Of a stretch of DNA of 64,000 nt, positions 44,082-52,053 are shown in pieces. The notes below the pieces were generated by a model, which made no database searches, was not told where the DNA came from, and saw only the letters and a list, made by a program, of their open reading frames with translations. The stretch lies in assembly GCF_001025155.1 (NCBI RefSeq), contig NZ_AP012322.1, forward strand, positions 930,001 through 994,000. The letters run 5' to 3'. Made by a program: the position numbers and the translations under genes. How positions within the stretch are numbered: the first letter of the stretch is position 1; every line of letters starts with the position of its first letter. Source of the DNA: Bifidobacterium angulatum DSM 20098 = JCM 7096. GTDB taxonomy: Bacteria; Actinomycetota; Actinomycetes; Actinomycetales; Bifidobacteriaceae.

Positions 44082-45245
44082 TCACATCATGTCCATAAGC
44101 ATGTAGCCCAGCATGATTTGCAGCCGGTCATCCAGGCTTGACAGATCCATGCATAGGATCTGACCGGCTTTGGCGATTTTGTAATTCACGGTATTGCGGT
44201 GGACGAACAGGTTCTCCGCGGTGTCCTTGACGCTGCCGTTATGATCGAGATAGCTGCGCAGCACGTCGGTGAGATCGGAATCGTTCTCCCGGTCGTATTC
44301 GACGAGCGGTCCCAGCACCTGCCTGTAGTATTCCTGCGATATTTCGGGGTCTTCCACACCGAGCAGCACACGGTACGCGCCCAGATCGTCGAAGAAGTTG
44401 ATTCGATCGTTCAGCTTGCCGCGTGCATGTAATTTGAGGATGGATTCGGCTTGTCGGTGGCTTTTGCAGATGCATCGGATGCTTTGCGTCAATTTGCCGA
44501 CGCCGATGGAAGCGGTCTCCGGCCCGCGTAACGCGCGTTGCACGACATCCAGTACGCCTTGCCCGACATTGCGTAGCTCTTCGGGGTTCTCGCAATGCAC
44601 GACGGCGACGATCTGCTCCCATTCGCCATATGTCGCACTGAATCGAATGCGTTTGCGCAGATACTTTTTGATGGTCTCATTGACCATGTCAATGCGACGA
44701 TAGGGGTCTTCGACGAAATCGTCGATTCTGACGACAATGACGGCATACCGCCATTCGATTTCGAAATGGAACTCGGAGAGCGCGGAAATGTACAGTTCCT
44801 GCCGTTCGGGAAACGAGACGGCGTTTCTGAAGGCTTCGCCGATCATGCGGTCGTGGGTCTCCTCGTCGATAAGGCGACGGCATAGCGGGCGCACGATGCT
44901 TTCGAAGGGAACGTCGCGGGGGATGGCGAATAGGGGGAAGGCGTGCTCCTCGCAGAACGTCGTTACCGTTTCGGGGATTTCGGCGATGTAATGACCTGTG
45001 TCTATGGCCACTCCGGCTACGCCTTTCGCGTAGAGGGCCCTTACGTAGGAAAGCAGGTCCGCGTCGTCGTGCAGCGCTACACCGGTGGTGAGGATCAGCT
45101 CGTCGCCGCCAAGATAGTCACTCAGCATGGTGGACTCCAGCACATGCACCCAAGTGATCCGGTGTGACAATCCATCGCTTCCGGCCAGCAGTTCGAGCCC
45201 TGTCTCGGGGCAGTCACCAAGAAGCTCCTGCAGTTCCAATGCCAT
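44082..45245 (-). CDS. PucR family transcriptional regulator
   Basis: A 387-residue regulator. The N-terminal PucR-like domain (about 1-125, with LAGSDGLSHRITWVHVLES and GGDELILTTGVAL) probably senses a ligand; the C-terminal HTH_30 domain (LRSYLDHNGSVKDTAENLFV, then HRNTVNYKIAKAGQIL) binds DNA. The ATG at 45245 follows AGGAG; a 29-codon upstream extension lacks one. It is divergent from the aminotransferase operon across 299 bp, so it is the likely activator of that operon. Relatives control purine, proline and GABA catabolism. Confidence 0.88.
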   Translation of the reverse strand: MALELQELLGDCPETGLELLAGSDGLSHRITWVHVLESTMLSDYLGGDELILTTGVALHDDADLLSYVRALYAKGVAGVAIDTGHYIAEIPETVTTFCEEHAFPLFAIPRDVPFESIVRPLCRRLIDEETHDRMIGEAFRNAVSFPERQELYISALSEFHFEIEWRYAVIVVRIDDFVEDPYRRIDMVNETIKKYLRKRIRFSATYGEWEQIVAVVHCENPEELRNVGQGVLDVVQRALRGPETASIGVGKLTQSIRCICKSHRQAESILKLHARGKLNDRINFFDDLGAYRVLLGVEDPEISQEYYRQVLGPLVEYDRENDSDLTDVLRSYLDHNGSVKDTAENLFVHRNTVNYKIAKAGQILCMDLSSLDDRLQIMLGYMLMDMM

Positions 45246-45544
45246 GTGTAATCTCCTGGAAACATTGATGTAACGACGTTTTCGGTGTTGTTGCGCACTG
45301 TGGCGGCTATACAAACAGCGTATCGGCGGCAATATGCGGTTTGTCGCCTTGGTTCATATATCGGTATGGGAAAGTGTGCTACTTCGGCAACGCGAATTGT
45401 GCTCGGGCACATTTGTTTTTGGGTCGAGACGGCTGGAAGAACAATTCAAAAGCAAAGATACTGAAGTCAGTTCAAGCCGAACAAGCCAGCTGAACAGACC
45501 GTGGTTCACGGCCTACGCCATAGCATCGCAAGGAGGACAGCATC
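45246..45544. promoter_or_regulatory. divergent regulatory region of the omega-amino acid locus
   Basis: This 299-bp gap holds the promoters of the PucR gene and the aminotransferase operon. A short palindrome TGTGC-TCGG-GCACA is at 45398-45411. I see no longer repeat or RNA element. Confidence 0.4.
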
Positions 45545-46762
45545 ATGAAGCTGCAGGATACCGGACTGACGTTCGAAGACATCAAGGGCAAGGTCAACAA
45601 GTACATGATCGAGACCTATGAGCGTTTCGATTTTCTGGCGGACCATGCCAAAGGCGTCTACATGTACGACGAGAACAACACCCCGTATCTTGATTTCTAC
45701 GCAGGCATCGCGGTCAATGCGGTCGGCAACTGCAATGAGAAGGTCGTCAAGGCGGTGCAGGATCAAGCCGCCACGCTGATGCAGACCTTCAATTACCCAT
45801 ACACCGTTCCGCAGGCGCTGCTCGCCGAGAAGATCTGCACGGCCATCGGCATGGACAAGATCTTCTATCAGAATTCCGGTACCGAGGCCAATGAAGCCAT
45901 GATCAAGATGGCCCGTAAATACGGTGTGGAAAAGTACGGCCCGGAAAAGTACCATATCGTCACCGCCCGTGAATCCTTCCACGGCCGCACCTTCGGTGCC
46001 ATGTCCGCAACCGGCCAGCCTGACAATGCATGCCAGATCGGCTTCGGGCCGATGACCGAAGGCTTCTCCTATGCGCCGTTCAACGATCTTGAGGCATTCA
46101 AGGCGGCATGTACCGAGAACACCATCGGCATCATGGTCGAGCCGGTGCAGGGCGAAGGCGGCGTGCACCCCGCAACCCAGGAATTCCTGCAGGGTCTGCG
46201 CGAGTTCTGCGACGAAAAAGGCATCCTGCTGCTGCTCGATGAAGTGCAATCCGGTTGGGGCCGTACCGGCGCGCTCATGTCCTACATGAACTATGGCATC
46301 AAGCCCGATATCGTCTCCATGGCCAAGGCCATGGGCGGCGGCATGCCGATCGGCGCCATCTGCGCCACCGAAGAGGTGTCCAAGGCGTTCACCATGGGAT
46401 CGCACGGCACCACCTTCGGAGGCCACCCGGTCTGCTGCGCAGCCTCGCTCGCCGCCGTCACCGAAATCATCGACCGCGACCTGCCGGGCAATGCCAAGAA
46501 GGTCGGCGCATACTTCATCGACAAGCTTTCCAAGCTGCCTCACGTCAAGGAGGCCCGTGGCCAGGGCCTGTTCGTCGGCGTCGAATTCGACGGCACTATC
46601 AACGCCGTCGATGTCAAGCACGGCTGCTTCGACCGCAAGCTGCTGATCACCGCCATCGGCAAGGATGTCATCCGCATGGTTCCGCCGCTGATCATCACCG
46701 AAGAGGACGTGGACAAGGCCGTCGCCATCATCGCCGACACGATCGACTCCCTCTCCAAGTGA
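45545..46762 (+). CDS. class III aminotransferase (4-aminobutyrate/omega-amino acid type)
   Basis: A 405-residue PLP enzyme. YQNSGTEANEAMIKMARKYG, ESFHGRTFGAMSATGQ, MVEPVQGEGG and LLLDEVQSGWGRTG are class III motifs, and Lys261 in IVSMAKAMGGGMPIG is the PLP lysine. It could act on GABA, beta-alanine, putrescine products or acetylornithine. The context (amino acid permease fused to a semialdehyde-type reductase, PucR regulator) favours an omega-amino acid over arginine synthesis. AAGGAGGACAGC precedes the ATG. It is first in a three-gene operon. Confidence 0.9.
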   Translation: MKLQDTGLTFEDIKGKVNKYMIETYERFDFLADHAKGVYMYDENNTPYLDFYAGIAVNAVGNCNEKVVKAVQDQAATLMQTFNYPYTVPQALLAEKICTAIGMDKIFYQNSGTEANEAMIKMARKYGVEKYGPEKYHIVTARESFHGRTFGAMSATGQPDNACQIGFGPMTEGFSYAPFNDLEAFKAACTENTIGIMVEPVQGEGGVHPATQEFLQGLREFCDEKGILLLLDEVQSGWGRTGALMSYMNYGIKPDIVSMAKAMGGGMPIGAICATEEVSKAFTMGSHGTTFGGHPVCCAASLAAVTEIIDRDLPGNAKKVGAYFIDKLSKLPHVKEARGQGLFVGVEFDGTINAVDVKHGCFDRKLLITAIGKDVIRMVPPLIITEEDVDKAVAIIADTIDSLSK

Positions 46763-46808: not shown

Positions 46809-47399
46809 ATGAAGCACATGGTCATCACCATCGGATGCGAATATGGCGCAGGAGGCCCCGAAATCGGCAAGATGCTCGCGCAGGCACTCGGCATCGAATA
46901 CTACGACCGTGATCTGGTCGACAAAATCGTCAATGATCTGGACGTGGACAAGGAACTCGTGGAGAAGGCGGATAAGGCGACGAACGTCCCCTACACCTTT
47001 GAAACGACGCTCGGCCCCCGATACGCGAACCTGACGAATAGGGTCATCTCGCTGCAATACCAGGCCATGCACAAAATGGCCGAGAAATCCTCCTGCGTCA
47101 TCATCGGACGCAGCGCGAACTATCTGCTGCACGACAGAGACGATCTGATCAACATCTTCATCTATGCGCCGGAAGAGGACCGAATCCGCGCGGTGATGGA
47201 GCATCAGTCGGTAAGCGAAGCCAAGGCGCGCGAAATCATCAGCTATAACGACGAGCGCAACCGCAGCAGGCATCAGTACATCACCGGCACGAATCGCGGC
47301 GATCGCAGCCAGCGTGATCTGCTGATCAACAGCAGCATGCTGGGCTGGGAGAAAACCTGCCAATACCTGCTGCTTCTGGTGGAAATGATGAACGAATAA
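46809..47399 (+). CDS. cytidylate kinase-like P-loop family protein
   Basis: A 196-residue protein with the modified P-loop ITIGCEYGAGGPEIGKMLA near the N-terminus, YYDRDLVDKI, and CVIIGRSANYLL near residue 97, as in the cytidylate-kinase-like AAA family of unknown substrate. These small kinases are common beside permeases and metabolic genes in gut Firmicutes and Actinobacteria. It is 46 bases after the aminotransferase gene, in the same operon. Its role in the pathway is not known; it could phosphorylate a metabolite or have a regulatory function. Confidence 0.85.
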   Translation: MKHMVITIGCEYGAGGPEIGKMLAQALGIEYYDRDLVDKIVNDLDVDKELVEKADKATNVPYTFETTLGPRYANLTNRVISLQYQAMHKMAEKSSCVIIGRSANYLLHDRDDLINIFIYAPEEDRIRAVMEHQSVSEAKAREIISYNDERNRSRHQYITGTNRGDRSQRDLLINSSMLGWEKTCQYLLLLVEMMNE

Positions 47400-47486: not shown

Positions 47487-50159
47487 ATGGAAACGCACAC
47501 AAGAACAACTTCGAAATTCAATAAGGCCTTCAGCTCCATGGATATTCTGATGATCGCCTTCGGCGCCATGATCGGATGGGGCTGGGTCGTCTCCACCGGC
47601 GACTGGATAGGGACAGCCGGTGTTATCGGCGCCATGCTGGGATTCATCCTTGGCGGCGTGATGATCTTCTTCATCGGCATGACCTACGCCGAGCTCACCC
47701 CCGCCATGCCGGAATGCGGCGGTGAGCATGTATTCAGCATGAGAGCCATGGGGCCTGTCGGCTCATTCGTCTGCACATGGGCCATCATCCTGGGCTATGT
47801 CAGCGTCGTGTGTTTCGAGGCATGCGCGCTGCCTACCATCATCACCTATGTGTGGCCGCAGTTCCTGCAAGGCTACCTGTACACCGTCGCAGGATTCGAC
47901 ATCTACGCCACTTGGCTGGCCACGGCCATCGTCTTCGCGATATTCATCACCGTGATCAATATCATGGGCGCGAAGACCGCGGCCAAGCTGCAGAACATTC
48001 TGACCCTCGCCATCGGCGCCGCGGGCATCCTGCTTATCGCGGCATCCGTTGTCACCGGCAACCCCTCGAATCTTGACGGGCAGATGTTCGCCGGCAGCGG
48101 CATGCAAGGCATGATGGGCACCATCATCAAAGTGGCCGCCGTCAGCCCGTTCTTCTTCATCGGATTCGATGTCATCCCGCAGGCCGCCGAAGAGATCAAC
48201 GTGCCGTTGAAGAAAATCGGCAAGATCCTCATCCTTTCCATCGTTCTGGGCGTCACCTTCTACGCATTGATCATCTTCTCCGTGGGCTATGTCATGAACA
48301 GCGGCCAGATCGCGGCATCCTATAACGGCAGTGGATTGGTCACCGCCGATGCCATGGCCAACGCCTTCCACAGCACCATCATGGCGAAAGTGCTGATCCT
48401 GGCCGGCATGTGCGGCATCATCACCAGCTGGAACTCGTTCATGATCGGCGGCAGCCGCGCCATGTACTCCATGGCCGAGTCCTATATGATTCCACGATTC
48501 TTCGCGAGGCTGCATCCGAAGACCAACACCCCGTACATCGCCATTCTCGTCGTCGGTCTGCTCAGTGTGCTCGCCCCGTTCGCCGGCCGCAAGATGCTCG
48601 TCTGGATCGTGGATGCCGGCAACTTCGGCTGCATTCTCGCATACTGCATGGTGTCGTCGTCCTTCATCATCCTGCACGTGAAGGAACCGACCATGCCCCG
48701 TCCGTACAAGGTGAAGCATTGGAAGTTCATCGGCGCCATGGCAGTGCTCATGTCGGCCATCATGATCATGCTGTATGTCTTCCCGGGCACTGGTGTGACG
48801 CTCGTTCCGCAGGAATGGGCGATGGTCGCCGGCTGGACGCTGCTTGGCGTGGTGTTCTTCGTCTTCAGCAAGCTTGTCTACAAGGAGAAGTTCGGCTATT
48901 ATGCCCAGCTTGCCGTAAGCGAATCCGCCAAGACCGAAGAGCAGGAGGAAACGACTGCGGCAGCACGTGCCACAAGCGCGATCATGGCCGCCGAAGTCAG
49001 CGGTCTGGACGAATGGAGCCGTGGTTTCGACTACTTCCTGCCGATCAACCTGGTTTTCGGGCAAGGCAAGGTCGAACAGGTCGGCAAGATCGCCGCCGCA
49101 CATGGCACCACCGCGATGATCGTCACCGGAGGCAGCTCCGTCAAACGCACTGGAACCTACGACAGGGTACGTGCACTGCTTGAGCGTGAAGGCATGCATA
49201 CCGTACTGTTCGATCAGGTCACTCCCAATCCGCTGACCACCACGGTGGAGGAAGGTGCGAAACTGGCCATAGCGCAGCATGCCGATGTCGTCATCGGACT
49301 TGGTGGAGGCAGCGCGATGGACGCGGCCAAGGGCATCGCCTTTATGGCGTGCAACGAGGGCGGCGTATCCGAGTACATCTATGGCGATCGATCTTCCAGC
49401 AAGGCCCTCCCGATCATTCAGGTGCCCACCACTTTCGGCACGGGATCGGAATCCAACGGGTTCGCGGTCATGACCAATCCCGATAACGGTGACAAGAAGT
49501 CGTTGCGAAGCCCGGCGCTCGTCGCCACGGCATCCATCGTCGATCCCGATCTCATGCGCACCATGCCCAGCAGCGTCATCGCCGCCAACGGATGCGACAT
49601 GCTCTGCCACTGCATCGAGGCGTTCACCGCCAACAATGCGCAGCCGTTCACCGATGCCCTGGCGTTGTACGCGATTCCGCTGATCGCCAACAACATCGTA
49701 AGCCTGTATCGTGGCGAAGGCACGGACGAGCAGTGGTCCAAGGTCTGCCTGGCCGGCACCATCGGCGGCATGGTGATCAACACCGCAGGCATCACGCTGG
49801 GGCATGCCATGGAGCATCCGGTCAGCGGCCTGAAGGACATCACCCACGGTCGGGGGCTTGCAGCCATCGAGCCCGTGGCAATCGAGGCCACTTACCGTTA
49901 TAACCGGTTCAAGTTCGGGCGCATCGCCAGAATGCTGGGCGGATTCACCGCAGAGGATTGCGCACCGCGTATGCGGACCTTGCTCAAGAGCCTCGACCTT
50001 GATGTGACATTGGGCGATCTTGGAATCGGAAAGAAGGATATTCCATGGTTGGCGCGGAACGCGAGAAAGGTTTCCCCAGGCAATCTGGTCAACACTCCGG
50101 GCTCTGAATCCACAACCTCCGAGGAATCCTTGGAGGACCTGTACGCTTCGATGATCTGA
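47487..50159 (+). CDS. amino acid permease (APC family) fused to iron-type alcohol dehydrogenase
   Basis: An 890-residue two-domain protein. Residues about 15-470 form a twelve-helix APC permease (FGAMIGWGWVVSTGDWIG, GGEHVFSMRAMGPVG, FIGFDVIPQAAEEINVPLKK). A charged, Ala-rich linker (about 475-510) leads to a complete group III alcohol dehydrogenase (about 513-890). This has GLGGGSAMDAAKG, PTTFGTGSESNGFAVM, and metal ligands in CDMLCHCIEAF (Asp, His), GHAMEHP (His) and DITHGRG (His). The reading frame runs unbroken through the linker. With the upstream aminotransferase it could import an omega-amino acid and reduce the resulting semialdehyde at the inner membrane face. GGAAGGAACG precedes the ATG. 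Confidence 0.93.
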   Translation: METHTRTTSKFNKAFSSMDILMIAFGAMIGWGWVVSTGDWIGTAGVIGAMLGFILGGVMIFFIGMTYAELTPAMPECGGEHVFSMRAMGPVGSFVCTWAIILGYVSVVCFEACALPTIITYVWPQFLQGYLYTVAGFDIYATWLATAIVFAIFITVINIMGAKTAAKLQNILTLAIGAAGILLIAASVVTGNPSNLDGQMFAGSGMQGMMGTIIKVAAVSPFFFIGFDVIPQAAEEINVPLKKIGKILILSIVLGVTFYALIIFSVGYVMNSGQIAASYNGSGLVTADAMANAFHSTIMAKVLILAGMCGIITSWNSFMIGGSRAMYSMAESYMIPRFFARLHPKTNTPYIAILVVGLLSVLAPFAGRKMLVWIVDAGNFGCILAYCMVSSSFIILHVKEPTMPRPYKVKHWKFIGAMAVLMSAIMIMLYVFPGTGVTLVPQEWAMVAGWTLLGVVFFVFSKLVYKEKFGYYAQLAVSESAKTEEQEETTAAARATSAIMAAEVSGLDEWSRGFDYFLPINLVFGQGKVEQVGKIAAAHGTTAMIVTGGSSVKRTGTYDRVRALLEREGMHTVLFDQVTPNPLTTTVEEGAKLAIAQHADVVIGLGGGSAMDAAKGIAFMACNEGGVSEYIYGDRSSSKALPIIQVPTTFGTGSESNGFAVMTNPDNGDKKSLRSPALVATASIVDPDLMRTMPSSVIAANGCDMLCHCIEAFTANNAQPFTDALALYAIPLIANNIVSLYRGEGTDEQWSKVCLAGTIGGMVINTAGITLGHAMEHPVSGLKDITHGRGLAAIEPVAIEATYRYNRFKFGRIARMLGGFTAEDCAPRMRTLLKSLDLDVTLGDLGIGKKDIPWLARNARKVSPGNLVNTPGSESTTSEESLEDLYASMI

Positions 50160-50245: not shown

Positions 50246-50348
50246 CATGCGGTTCGCGCTATGCCCCAGAGTGGTGGGGCAGTCATGACGATGGGAGGGT
50301 TGGCCGATGCGTCGGTATGCTATGACAAGGTTTCGAAAGGACAACCCA

Positions 50349-51026
50349 ATGTACATTCACTCAAGAGCGGCATCCGTCGTCTATAAAATCATCCTGGCAT
50401 TGGTCGGCATTTCGGCATTGCTATACGAGGTCGGCTTTGGCTACGGATATTTCAGAAGCGTGTTCTTCTGCTATTTCACCAATCTCAGCAACATCGCCGT
50501 AGTCGCATACCTGTGGGCCGCCGCTGTGGCGGCGCTGCGTAAGGACTCCACGTGGCCGGAGCCCTGGCAGCCAAAGCTCAAGCATGCGCTTATGCTCGCC
50601 ATCACCGTCACATGGCTGGTTGCGCATTTTCTGCTCGACCATGGCGGCGTTTTCAAAGGCGGAACGTTCCACTGGACTTCCCTGGTGCTGCACTACATCG
50701 TTCCGATCGGCATGATTCTCGATTGGCTGCTGTTCGACCGCAAGGGCACGATGAGCAAGTTCGAACCGCCATGCTGGATTGCCTTCCCTTTGGCGTATCT
50801 GGCGTGCATCATGGTCGGCGTATGGTGCTTCGGCCTGTATGTCAGAGTCGATGATCATAGTCGCTGGCCCTATGACTTCATCGATTTCGACAAGCATGGC
50901 GTTCCCGGGGTGGCGTTGACGGTGCTGCTGCTGATCGTCGGTTTCGTCATTCTGGGCTACGTATACATGCTCGTCGATCATCTGATGGATCGTACGGCGT
51001 CGAATACCCTGCCAGCGAAATCCTGA
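50349..51026 (+). CDS. Pr6Pr family membrane protein
   Basis: A 225-residue protein with six membrane helices and the conserved FFCYFTNLSNI near residue 38, FHWTSLVLHYIVPIGMILDW and RWPYDFID motifs of the Pr6Pr (FAR-17a/AIG1-like) family. Its function is unknown; eukaryotic relatives hydrolyse lipid esters. The ATG at 50349 follows GAAAGGA; an upstream extension lacks a ribosome site. It lies 82 bases before bsh in the same direction and may share its transcript. Confidence 0.82.
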   Translation: MYIHSRAASVVYKIILALVGISALLYEVGFGYGYFRSVFFCYFTNLSNIAVVAYLWAAAVAALRKDSTWPEPWQPKLKHALMLAITVTWLVAHFLLDHGGVFKGGTFHWTSLVLHYIVPIGMILDWLLFDRKGTMSKFEPPCWIAFPLAYLACIMVGVWCFGLYVRVDDHSRWPYDFIDFDKHGVPGVALTVLLLIVGFVILGYVYMLVDHLMDRTASNTLPAKS

Positions 51027-51108: not shown

Positions 51109-52053
51109 ATGTGCACTGGCATTCGTTTCATTGACGCCGAAGGCAATATGGTATTCGGGCGTAATCTTGATTGGAGTTTCTCGTATGGCGAGTCCATTCT
51201 GGTGACGCCGCGTGGATTCTCCTGCGACTACACCTACGGTGGAACCGACAAGCATCCCGCCGCCGTAATCGGCGTCGGCGTGGAGATGAACGGCATGCCC
51301 ATGTATTTCGATTGCGCCAACGAAAACGGTCTTGCCATAGCTGGGCTGAACTTCCCCGGCTATGCATCGTTCGCTTCCGAGCCGGAACAGGGGCGCGTCA
51401 ACATCCTCACCGGCGAGTTCCCGCTATGGGTCGCGCGTAATTTCAATACGGTTGATGAGGTCGAACAGGCGTTGGCAAACGTCACACTTGTATCGCCGGA
51501 CGATCCCAAGCGCCCCAAGTCGTTCCTGCACTGGCTGATCGGCGATGCCAAGCGCAGCATCGTTGTCGAGCAGATGGCGGACGGCATGCACATCCATCAT
51601 GATGACATCGATGTGCTTGCCAACCAGCCGACGTTCGATTGGCACATGGAGAATCTGCGCAACTATATGAATGTGGGCAGCGATATGGCCGAGCCCACCG
51701 CATGGGGCAAGCATACCCTTACCGCATGGGGAGCCGGCGTAAGCATGCATGGCCTTCCCGGCGATGTGAGTTCGCCCTCCCGTTTTGTGCGTGTGGCCTA
51801 TGCTAATACTCATTACCCGGTGCAGAGCGGTGAAACCGCGAACATCGCGCGTCTGTTCCACACGCTCGCCTCCGTGCAGATGGTCGAGGGCATGGCGAAG
51901 ATGGCGGACGGCAAGTACGAGAGGACGCTGTTCACCAGCGGCTACTATGCCAAGACCAACGCCTACTATATGAACACCTATGAGGATCCCGCCATCCGGA
52001 AGTACGCCTTTGCCGACTACGATCTCGAATCGGCGGAACTCATCAGGGCGTAG
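51109..52053 (+). CDS. bsh: conjugated bile salt hydrolase (choloylglycine hydrolase)
   Basis: A 314-residue Ntn hydrolase that splits glycine or taurine from bile salts. After removal of Met1, Cys2 is the nucleophile; Arg18, Asp21, Asn81, Asn172 and Arg225 align with the other catalytic residues of the Bifidobacterium longum enzyme. The sequence MCTGIRF and GRNLDWSFSYGE are diagnostic. GAAGGAG precedes the ATG. It supports survival in bile. A strong terminator follows at once, then a broken LysR gene that may once have regulated the locus. Confidence 0.96.
   Translation: MCTGIRFIDAEGNMVFGRNLDWSFSYGESILVTPRGFSCDYTYGGTDKHPAAVIGVGVEMNGMPMYFDCANENGLAIAGLNFPGYASFASEPEQGRVNILTGEFPLWVARNFNTVDEVEQALANVTLVSPDDPKRPKSFLHWLIGDAKRSIVVEQMADGMHIHHDDIDVLANQPTFDWHMENLRNYMNVGSDMAEPTAWGKHTLTAWGAGVSMHGLPGDVSSPSRFVRVAYANTHYPVQSGETANIARLFHTLASVQMVEGMAKMADGKYERTLFTSGYYAKTNAYYMNTYEDPAIRKYAFADYDLESAELIRA

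What the first reader, a model, noticed from the sequence alone, without database searches (positions are those of the whole stretch)
47487..50159. Amino acid importer covalently fused to an Fe-type alcohol dehydrogenase
One unbroken 890-codon frame joins a twelve-helix APC permease to a full-length group III alcohol dehydrogenase with all four metal ligands. I know of no characterised protein with this order. The fusion would place a semialdehyde reductase at the inner mouth of the importer, which could channel an unstable or toxic aldehyde made by the aminotransferase encoded upstream.
Basis: partly seen in the sequence, partly recalled or inferred. Interest (0 to 1): 0.88.

Follow-up and report, generated by a model that had tools for sequence, protein, structure and literature searches.

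The report
Importer fused to an aldehyde reductase
A gut bifidobacterium makes one long protein that joins an amino acid importer to a metal-dependent alcohol dehydrogenase; the join is real, shared with other gut anaerobes, and most likely serves to strip nitrogen from small amino acids such as 5-aminovalerate or GABA and dispose of the leftover aldehyde as a hydroxy acid.

Summary
47487-50159 is one 890-codon frame: APC permease (residues 19-450), disordered linker (477-512), complete Fe-dependent alcohol dehydrogenase (520-860) with all four metal ligands. It is no sequencing error: all 120 listed database hits carry both halves, and the fusion is in 9 of 91 genomes of the genus and 14 of 397 Lachnospiraceae-type genomes. 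NCBI already names such proteins 'bifunctional amino acid transporter/iron-containing alcohol dehydrogenase'; four searches of the held library showed no characterisation.

The gene belongs to a conserved module: aminotransferase, cytidylate-kinase-like gene, permease-ADH. Unfused relatives of the ADH and the aminotransferase often lie together, several right behind D-proline reductase genes (product 5-aminovalerate). Best reading: an omega-amino acid (5-aminovalerate or GABA) is imported, transaminated to glutamate plus a semialdehyde, and the tethered ADH reduces that to an omega-hydroxy acid.

Bifidobacterium probably acquired the fusion twice (p-AU 0.0003).

The parts
44082..45332 (-). PucR-type transcriptional regulator, divergent from the module; likely its regulator (inferred)
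   Evidence: Pfam PucR + HTH_30; a PucR-type gene lies at 7 of 14 fused Lachnospiraceae-type loci and 5 of 9 Bifidobacterium loci. The start codon is uncertain (TTG).
45545..46762 (+). Class III aminotransferase 'AT405' (405 aa), related to ArgD but not the housekeeping ArgD; proposed omega-amino acid:2-oxoglutarate aminotransferase
   Evidence: Pfam Aminotran_3; NCBIfam argD subfamily 429 bits (cut-off 410), no equivalog cut-off met among the 25 families shown. The genome's other class III aminotransferase (near 1363167, 39% identity) passes an acetylornithine transaminase equivalog, 578 against 457, where AT405 has 384.
46809..47399 (+). Cytidylate-kinase-like protein (CK, 196 aa), role unknown
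   Evidence: Pfam Cytidylate_kin2; beside the permease in 24 of 24 fused loci examined and fused to the permease in L080.
47487..50159 (+). Fusion gene: APC permease - linker - Fe-dependent alcohol dehydrogenase, 890 aa
47487..48893 (+). Permease part, residues 1-469
   Evidence: AA_permease_2 19-450; helices in the model; border set by conservation
48894..49025 (+). Ala/Glu-rich linker, residues 470-513
   Evidence: pLDDT under 50 at 477-512; 41-105 residues long among 60 sequences; mean commonest-residue frequency 0.36 against 0.82 and 0.78 in the flanking domains
49026..50156 (+). ADH part, residues 514-890
   Evidence: Fe-ADH and ADH_Fe_C; the 50 listed Foldseek matches are mostly solved Fe-ADHs
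49596..49847 (+). Span of the four metal-ligand codons D704, H708, H773, H787
   Evidence: conservation; assignment by spacing to E. coli FucO (recalled)

Best explanation
The module is an importer - aminotransferase - reductase unit for nitrogen salvage from an omega-amino acid, most likely 5-aminovalerate or GABA. The permease half brings the amino acid in (inferred). The separate aminotransferase at 45545-46762 passes its nitrogen to 2-oxoglutarate, giving glutamate and a semialdehyde (inferred from family and neighbours). The ADH half, tethered to the membrane by a flexible linker, reduces glutarate or succinic semialdehyde to 5-hydroxyvalerate or 4-hydroxybutyrate with NAD(P)H, removing a reactive aldehyde and re-oxidising cofactor (inferred). 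Shown here: the fusion, its conservation, its constant partners, unfused relatives in the same kind of gene cluster, and that no semialdehyde dehydrogenase was found in this genome. Fusion probably gives fixed stoichiometry and co-location at the membrane rather than a rigid channel (inferred).
For: (1) All 24 fused loci examined have one of three amino-acid enzymes near the fusion: AT405 in 17, the GABA-aminotransferase-like AT450 alone in 4, an OCD-family gene in 3. (2) ADH-half search of 391 genomes of the class of G149: 8 match at E 1e-100, the fused centre genome and 7 unfused; 5 of these 7 have AT405 or AT450 within the 19 kb fetched. (3) AT405 search of the order of G872: 21 of 225 genomes; prdA (D-proline reductase) lies in the stretch fetched in 7 of 21 and the ADH in 11 of 21. 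G872 was chosen as centre because its locus L111 already showed both; without it the counts are 6 of 20 and 10 of 20. L152 shows prdC and a prdA piece at a contig end. In L111, L150, L157 and L158 the order is prdC-prdA-prdB-racemase-ADH-AT405; PrdA (883 against 700) and PrdC (634 against 490) of L111 pass NCBIfam cut-offs, the racemase does not (502 against 556), and PrdB is my label by position. Proline reduction to 5-aminovalerate, and its deamination to 5-hydroxyvalerate by Clostridium viride, stand in PMC8473912 (passages). (4) L094: putrescine aminotransferase (672 against 612 in one model, 476 against 659 in another) - unidentified 458-aa gene - aldehyde dehydrogenase family gene - CK-like - AT450 - ADH (59%), which fits putrescine to GABA to succinic semialdehyde to 4-hydroxybutyrate. 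(5) In the window's genome the aldehyde dehydrogenase family rings in two genes only: an AdhE-like 958-residue frame and ProA. A glutamate decarboxylase is present (631 against 380). (6) 14 of 14 ADHs of this subfamily compared, 4 fused and 10 unfused counting L154 and L153, share GSE[GS]N, DKKS[LI][RK] and H[AG][ML]EHP, which 6 of 6 other Fe-ADHs compared lack.
Against: No activity has been measured. AT405 is ArgD-like by score and passes no GABA, ornithine or putrescine aminotransferase equivalog among those shown, so ornithine or a diamine is not excluded. The prd link would also fit an aminotransferase that supplies proline from ornithine, and PMC4113996 in one passage names the D-proline reductase product otherwise (2-keto-5-aminopentanoate; passages). 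In L144, L151 and L161 AT405 stands in a prd cluster without the ADH; in L145, L155, L156, L159 and L160 it has neither ADH, PERM nor prd nearby. Three fused loci have an OCD-family gene instead of an aminotransferase, which does not obviously make a semialdehyde. The ADH is far below the 4-hydroxybutyrate dehydrogenase equivalog (169 against 500). L115 and L116 have the ADH without either aminotransferase. AguB at L077 and PotA at L084 hint at diamines. Permease specificity rests on context alone.
Confidence: 0.6

Rival explanations
1. Diamine route: the permease imports putrescine (or cadaverine), AT405 makes 4-aminobutanal, and the ADH half reduces it to 4-amino-1-butanol.
For: AT405 follows N-carbamoylputrescine amidase (467 bits, cut-off 410) and an aldehyde dehydrogenase family gene in L077; a PotA-subfamily gene (387 against 356; PotA equivalogs not met) lies upstream in L084; a HTH-cupin regulator, which reminds me of PuuR (recalled), is in 16 of 44 AT405 loci.
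Against: In L094 the putrescine step has its own aminotransferase and the ADH lies next to the GABA-AT-like gene; four Bifidobacterium genomes pair the fusion with AT450 and have no close AT405; prd clusters make 5-aminovalerate, not a diamine.
Confidence: 0.15
2. Taurine route: taurine import, transamination to sulfoacetaldehyde, reduction to isethionate, as proposed for Bifidobacterium kashiwanohense.
For: Same logic (importer, aminotransferase, metal-dependent ADH, same genus; PMC6616044, part 1 of 5, one short section and passages read); its sulfoacetaldehyde reductase is among the structure matches (6jko).
Against: That enzyme is only 28% identical to the ADH half; SarD equivalog 182 bits against cut-off 700; AT405's nearest solved structures are acetylornithine aminotransferases.
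Confidence: 0.05
3. Ornithine or another alpha-amino acid: AT405 is an ornithine delta-aminotransferase, the OCD-family gene replaces it, and the ADH has an unrelated role.
For: ArgD-subfamily score of AT405; proline reductase neighbourhood; OCD-family gene in three fused loci.
Against: Glutamate semialdehyde cyclises and I know of no Fe-ADH step for it (recalled); AT405 scores 299 against 378 for ornithine aminotransferase; the OCD-family gene fits 'tyramine oxidase subunit B' (531 against 362) and is weak for ornithine cyclodeaminase (44 against 350); AT405 and ADH are paired with no prd in the stretch fetched in L146, L148, L149, L153 and L154.
Confidence: 0.1
4. The joining itself has no functional effect: the halves act independently, perhaps also as a free ADH from an internal start. 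This can hold together with the best explanation.
For: Variable, disordered linker; unfused equivalents in the same kind of cluster.
Against: The fused form persists in 14 Lachnospiraceae-type genomes of the sample and was kept after what look like two separate transfers into Bifidobacterium.
Confidence: 0.35

Closest known systems
Database class 'bifunctional amino acid transporter/iron-containing alcohol dehydrogenase' (NCBI) or 'alcohol dehydrogenase class IV/amino acid transporter' (JGI)
   Same: Same two domains; the 119 listed hits other than the window's own cluster show 61-95% identity over 86-100% of the query (only some of them carry these names)
   Different: Nothing structural that I saw; the class is a name without a function, and this report adds the gene cluster and pathway inference
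5-Aminovalerate to 5-hydroxyvalerate in Clostridium viride (PMC8473912, passages)
   Same: Proposed deamination followed by reduction to the hydroxy acid
   Different: There the product goes on to valerate; none of the six window genes annotated is a CoA-activating enzyme, and here the reductase is tied to the importer. The C. viride genes were not compared.
B. kashiwanohense taurine nitrogen assimilation with TauF (PMC6616044, partly read)
   Same: Nitrogen salvage by aminotransferase plus metal-dependent ADH in the same genus
   Different: TauF is a stand-alone ADH, 28% identical; the IsfD pathway that it is likened to has a separate importer and a putative exporter
Other transporter-enzyme fusions such as SulP-carbonic anhydrase and LplT-Aas (recalled, not tested)
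   Same: A membrane carrier covalently tied to an enzyme of its pathway
   Different: Different carrier and enzyme families

Membership tests
APC-type amino acid permease (PF13520) | Full-length AA_permease_2 domain | tested here: met
   residues 19-450, profile 5-421 of 427, 119 bits against 27
APC-type amino acid permease (PF13520) | Twelve membrane helices | tested here: inconclusive
   helices listed in the model can be read as twelve, but no membrane-topology program was run
Group III Fe-dependent alcohol dehydrogenase (PF00465) | Both domains present | tested here: met
   Fe-ADH 520-687 and ADH_Fe_C 699-860; Foldseek E 1.0e-24 to 5yvm
Group III Fe-dependent alcohol dehydrogenase (PF00465) | Asp-His-His-His metal ligands and GGGS..D motif | tested here: met
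   D704, H708, H773, H787, G606-S609, D612 conserved
Group III Fe-dependent alcohol dehydrogenase (PF00465) | Metal-dependent NAD(P)H oxidoreductase activity | not testable with these tools
   needs the protein
4-Hydroxybutyrate dehydrogenase (NF058672) | Equivalog score cut-off | tested here: not met
   168.7 bits against 500; so works-like only
Sulfoacetaldehyde reductase SarD/TauF | SarD equivalog cut-off; close identity to the B. kashiwanohense enzyme | tested here: not met
   181.9 bits against 700; 28% identity to 6jko
ArgD acetylornithine aminotransferase (window AT405) | Equivalog cut-off | tested here: not met
   subfamily models met (429 against 410; 412 against 372), equivalogs not met (384 against 457; 376 against 496); the genome's other aminotransferase does meet one (578 against 457)
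GABA aminotransferase (TIGR00700), for the neighbour AT450 of L083 and L100 | Equivalog cut-off | tested here: not met
   463.6 and 473.1 bits against 506.65, somewhat below
5-Aminovalerate aminotransferase | Activity on 5-aminovalerate | not testable with these tools
   context only

The most novel reading that the evidence does not exclude
The permease is an exchanger whose export substrate is the product of its own fused enzyme: it takes in 5-aminovalerate or GABA and sends out the omega-hydroxy acid that the tethered ADH makes. That would explain why the last enzyme of the pathway, not the first, is joined to the carrier, and why I recognised no separate exporter gene that recurs in the module (the membrane protein behind the window's fusion has a relative in only two of the 67 other loci compared).
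Probability: 0.12. Interest if true: 0.75.

Novelty: new variant of a known kind. Interest (0 to 1): 0.5.

Why it matters
If right, it gives a function to an unexplained protein class of gut anaerobes, ties some Bifidobacterium species to the use of proline- or glutamate-derived omega-amino acids (5-aminovalerate, GABA), and offers a natural test of whether tethering a detoxifying reductase to an importer changes flux or aldehyde leakage, since fused and unfused forms exist in the same type of gene cluster.

Tried and rejected
Taurine/sulfoacetaldehyde was my first lead because of the B. kashiwanohense enzyme in the same genus; identity (28%) and the SarD cut-off spoke against it. Sequencing error, frameshift and chance open frame were rejected by conservation in independent assemblies. 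A housekeeping ArgD role for the window aminotransferase was set aside because another gene passes that equivalog. NCBIfam could not name the ADH: the best of the 25 families shown (26 found), ErcA, scored 231 against 550. In the pocket alignment the row for AdhE was read in a wrong frame and was dropped; a row for fused L099 that I meant to include was not picked up by the script. My simple ORF caller hid the fusion in L096 behind a longer antisense frame, so L096 is missing from the trees, as is L143, which was fetched later; both count as fused in the locus table (L096 is G051, 890 residues without stops; L143). The trees are quick ones with several unresolved forks. The four actinobacterial loci L118-L121 (permease 42-43% identical) showed none of the module genes and are left out of the later table. 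Literature searches were judged by their listings (64: 25 of 29 papers, 71: 12 of 14 listed); none showed a paper on the fusion. The library holds open-licence papers only.
Full report
What is there. Pfam finds AA_permease_2 at residues 19-450, Fe-ADH at 520-687 and ADH_Fe_C at 699-860, each above its cut-off. AlphaFold on an alignment of 60 sequences, window included (60 of the 121 proteins P0001-P0121), gives mean pLDDT 83.1 and pTM 0.53, with one long uncertain stretch at 477-512, the linker. The linker is Ala/Glu-rich, 41 to 105 residues long and poorly conserved (commonest-residue frequency 0.36, against 0.82 in the permease and 0.78 in the ADH). The metal ligands D704, H708, H773 and H787 are kept in 60, 60, 59 and 60 of 60; their assignment by spacing to FucO is recalled. 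Foldseek ranks solved Fe-ADHs first.

Where it occurs. The window lies in a 2.02 Mb single-contig genome. Its nearest named relatives at this locus are Bifidobacterium erythrocebi, pongonis, merycicum and moukalabense, all fused. In the genome search the fusion is in 9 of 91 genomes of the genus, own genome included (G000, G056, G051, G012, G024, G069, G074, G035, G060). In a sample of the family of G149 (the genome of a record titled uncultured Lachnospiraceae bacterium), 31 of 397 genomes match at E 1e-140 or better. 14 of these are fused permease-ADH, one (G530) is a permease-CK fusion, and 16 have the permease as its own gene. In a sample of 391 genomes of the class of G149 with the ADH half as query, 8 match at E 1e-100; one is the fused centre genome, the other 7 are unfused. 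So the fusion is uncommon even in the groups that have it. Of 2207 protein hits the best 120 are listed and all have both halves; some carry the names 'bifunctional amino acid transporter/iron-containing alcohol dehydrogenase' or 'alcohol dehydrogenase class IV/amino acid transporter'. The architecture is therefore known as an annotation; the listings of four searches of the held library showed no paper on it.

The module. I fetched 71 stretches of 6 to 19 kb and mapped shared genes in 67 of them plus the window; the four actinobacterial stretches L118-L121 carry a permease at 42-43% identity and none of the other module genes. In the window the order is PucR regulator (divergent), aminotransferase AT405, cytidylate-kinase-like gene CK, fusion. 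Over the 24 fused loci (window, L063-L075, L078, L095-L102, L143) CK lies beside the fusion in 24 of 24. AT405 is present in 17, the other aminotransferase AT450 without AT405 in 4, and an OCD-family gene in 3. AT450 scores somewhat below the GABA aminotransferase cut-off (464 and 473 against 507). In Bifidobacterium the two aminotransferases swap cleanly: AT405 at 94-100% identity is in 5 of 5 genomes of one group and in none of the other 4 or of 5 control genomes (best there 43% or less). AT450 at 98-100% is in 4 of 4 of the second group; 4 of 5 genomes of the first group have 43-45% relatives elsewhere, and the window's genome has none above 40%.

Split forms. In L083 an ADH of the same subfamily (55%) lies in the cluster AT450-ADH-AT405-CK-permease. 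In L154 permease, ADH and AT405 are neighbouring separate genes, permease and ADH 93 bases apart, a plausible state before fusion. In L076, L077, L079, L082 and L084 a different Fe-ADH (about 30% identical to the window's) sits directly behind the permease. In L080 the permease is fused to the CK-like domain (709 residues). These cases suggest that permease, ADH and CK belong together functionally whether or not they are joined. Against that, the more distant permeases of L085-L087 and L089-L093 stand without ADH or either aminotransferase.

History. In the ADH tree (38 rows, quick method) the 22 fused rows nest among unfused ADHs from similar clusters; the label needs 2 changes. In the permease tree it needs 3. 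L096 and L143 are not in these trees. A tree of the joined domains of the 22 fused proteins puts the two Bifidobacterium groups in different places among the Lachnospiraceae-type sequences; holding them together is rejected (p-AU 0.0003). So the genus probably received the fusion twice; the direction of transfer was not tested.

What it acts on. Two searches did not use the whole fusion as query. The ADH search found 7 unfused relatives; 5 of 7 have AT405 or AT450 in the 19 kb fetched, L115 and L116 have neither. The AT405 search in the order of G872 found 21 of 225 genomes. prdA, a D-proline reductase gene, is in the stretch fetched in 7 of 21 (L111, L144, L150, L151, L157, L158, L161), and L152 shows prdC and a prdA piece at a contig end; the ADH is in 11 of 21, with a further piece at a contig end in L147. 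G872 was chosen as centre because its locus L111, found with the ADH, already showed prd and AT405; without it the counts are 6 and 10 of 20. A random 17-19 kb stretch of a genome of 2.5-6.5 Mb would hold a given single gene in under 1% of cases (arithmetic). In L111 PrdA and PrdC pass their curated cut-offs (883 against 700, 634 against 490); the proline racemase falls short of its own (502 against 556); ADH and AT405 follow. D-proline reductase makes 5-aminovalerate, and Clostridium viride deaminates that to 5-hydroxyvalerate (PMC8473912, passages); PMC4113996 names the first product otherwise in one passage. L144, L151 and L161 have prd and AT405 but no ADH; L145, L155, L156, L159 and L160 have AT405 with neither. 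In L094 a putrescine aminotransferase (672 against 612 in one model, 476 against 659 in another), an unidentified gene, an aldehyde dehydrogenase family gene (no equivalog met), a CK-like gene, AT450 and the ADH stand in line: this fits putrescine to GABA to succinic semialdehyde to 4-hydroxybutyrate. Plant and mammalian 4-aminobutyrate transporters are said to take 5-aminovalerate too (PMC4980613, passages); they are not shown to be close to this permease. AguB upstream of AT405 at L077 and PotA at L084 keep a diamine substrate possible.

The window's genome. Aldehyde dehydrogenase family matches fall in two genes only, an AdhE-like 958-residue frame and ProA, so no semialdehyde dehydrogenase was found at that sensitivity and reduction is the likely exit. 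A glutamate decarboxylase is present (631 bits against 380), so GABA may also arise inside the cell. The only other class III aminotransferase found passes an acetylornithine transaminase equivalog (578 against 457), where AT405 has 384; AT405 is thus free for another task.

Pocket. In an alignment of 14 ADHs of this subfamily, 3 fused relatives and the window among them counting L063 and L078, with 6 other Fe-ADHs (three type-2, two type-3, one stand-alone enzyme of the window's genome), GSE[GS]N, DKKS[LI][RK] and H[AG][ML]EHP are in 14 of 14 and 0 of 6. K671 and R674 are invariant in the 60 sequences and could hold a carboxylate; that is inference. G548 stands where FucO has the Asp that favours NAD, so NADPH is possible (recalled).

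Judgement. The best reading is an importer-linked reductase in an omega-amino acid nitrogen-salvage module. Confidence is about 0.6 for this pathway class and lower for choosing between 5-aminovalerate and GABA.

Noticed in passing
window 46809-47399; L080:7151-9280: A cytidylate-kinase-like gene of unknown role is the most constant neighbour of this permease and is fused to it in L080; more distant CK-like genes also lie in L112 and L114 beside ABC-transporter-like genes and the unfused ADH.
   Followed up: partly
L009:471-6295 and L063-L065: A fused-locus variant in which an OCD-family gene (NCBIfam 'tyramine oxidase subunit B', 531 bits, cut-off 362) replaces the aminotransferase; in L009 FAD genes resembling sarcosine oxidase subunits (below cut-offs) are divergent from it.
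   Followed up: partly
L111, L150, L157, L158: D-proline reductase clusters continue into an Fe-ADH and an ArgD-like aminotransferase, which suggests onward conversion of 5-aminovalerate in proline fermenters.
   Followed up: partly
window 47763-49847, - strand: A 694-codon open frame lies antisense to the fusion; it is most likely a shadow of the coding strand in G+C-rich DNA.
   Followed up: no
window 51109-52053: A choloylglycine-hydrolase-family gene (CBAH, 306 bits; possible bile salt hydrolase) lies downstream of the module.
   Followed up: no
window 50307-51026: A membrane protein of the Pr6Pr family directly follows the fusion; a relative was found in only 2 of the 67 other loci compared (L095, L096).
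   Followed up: partly
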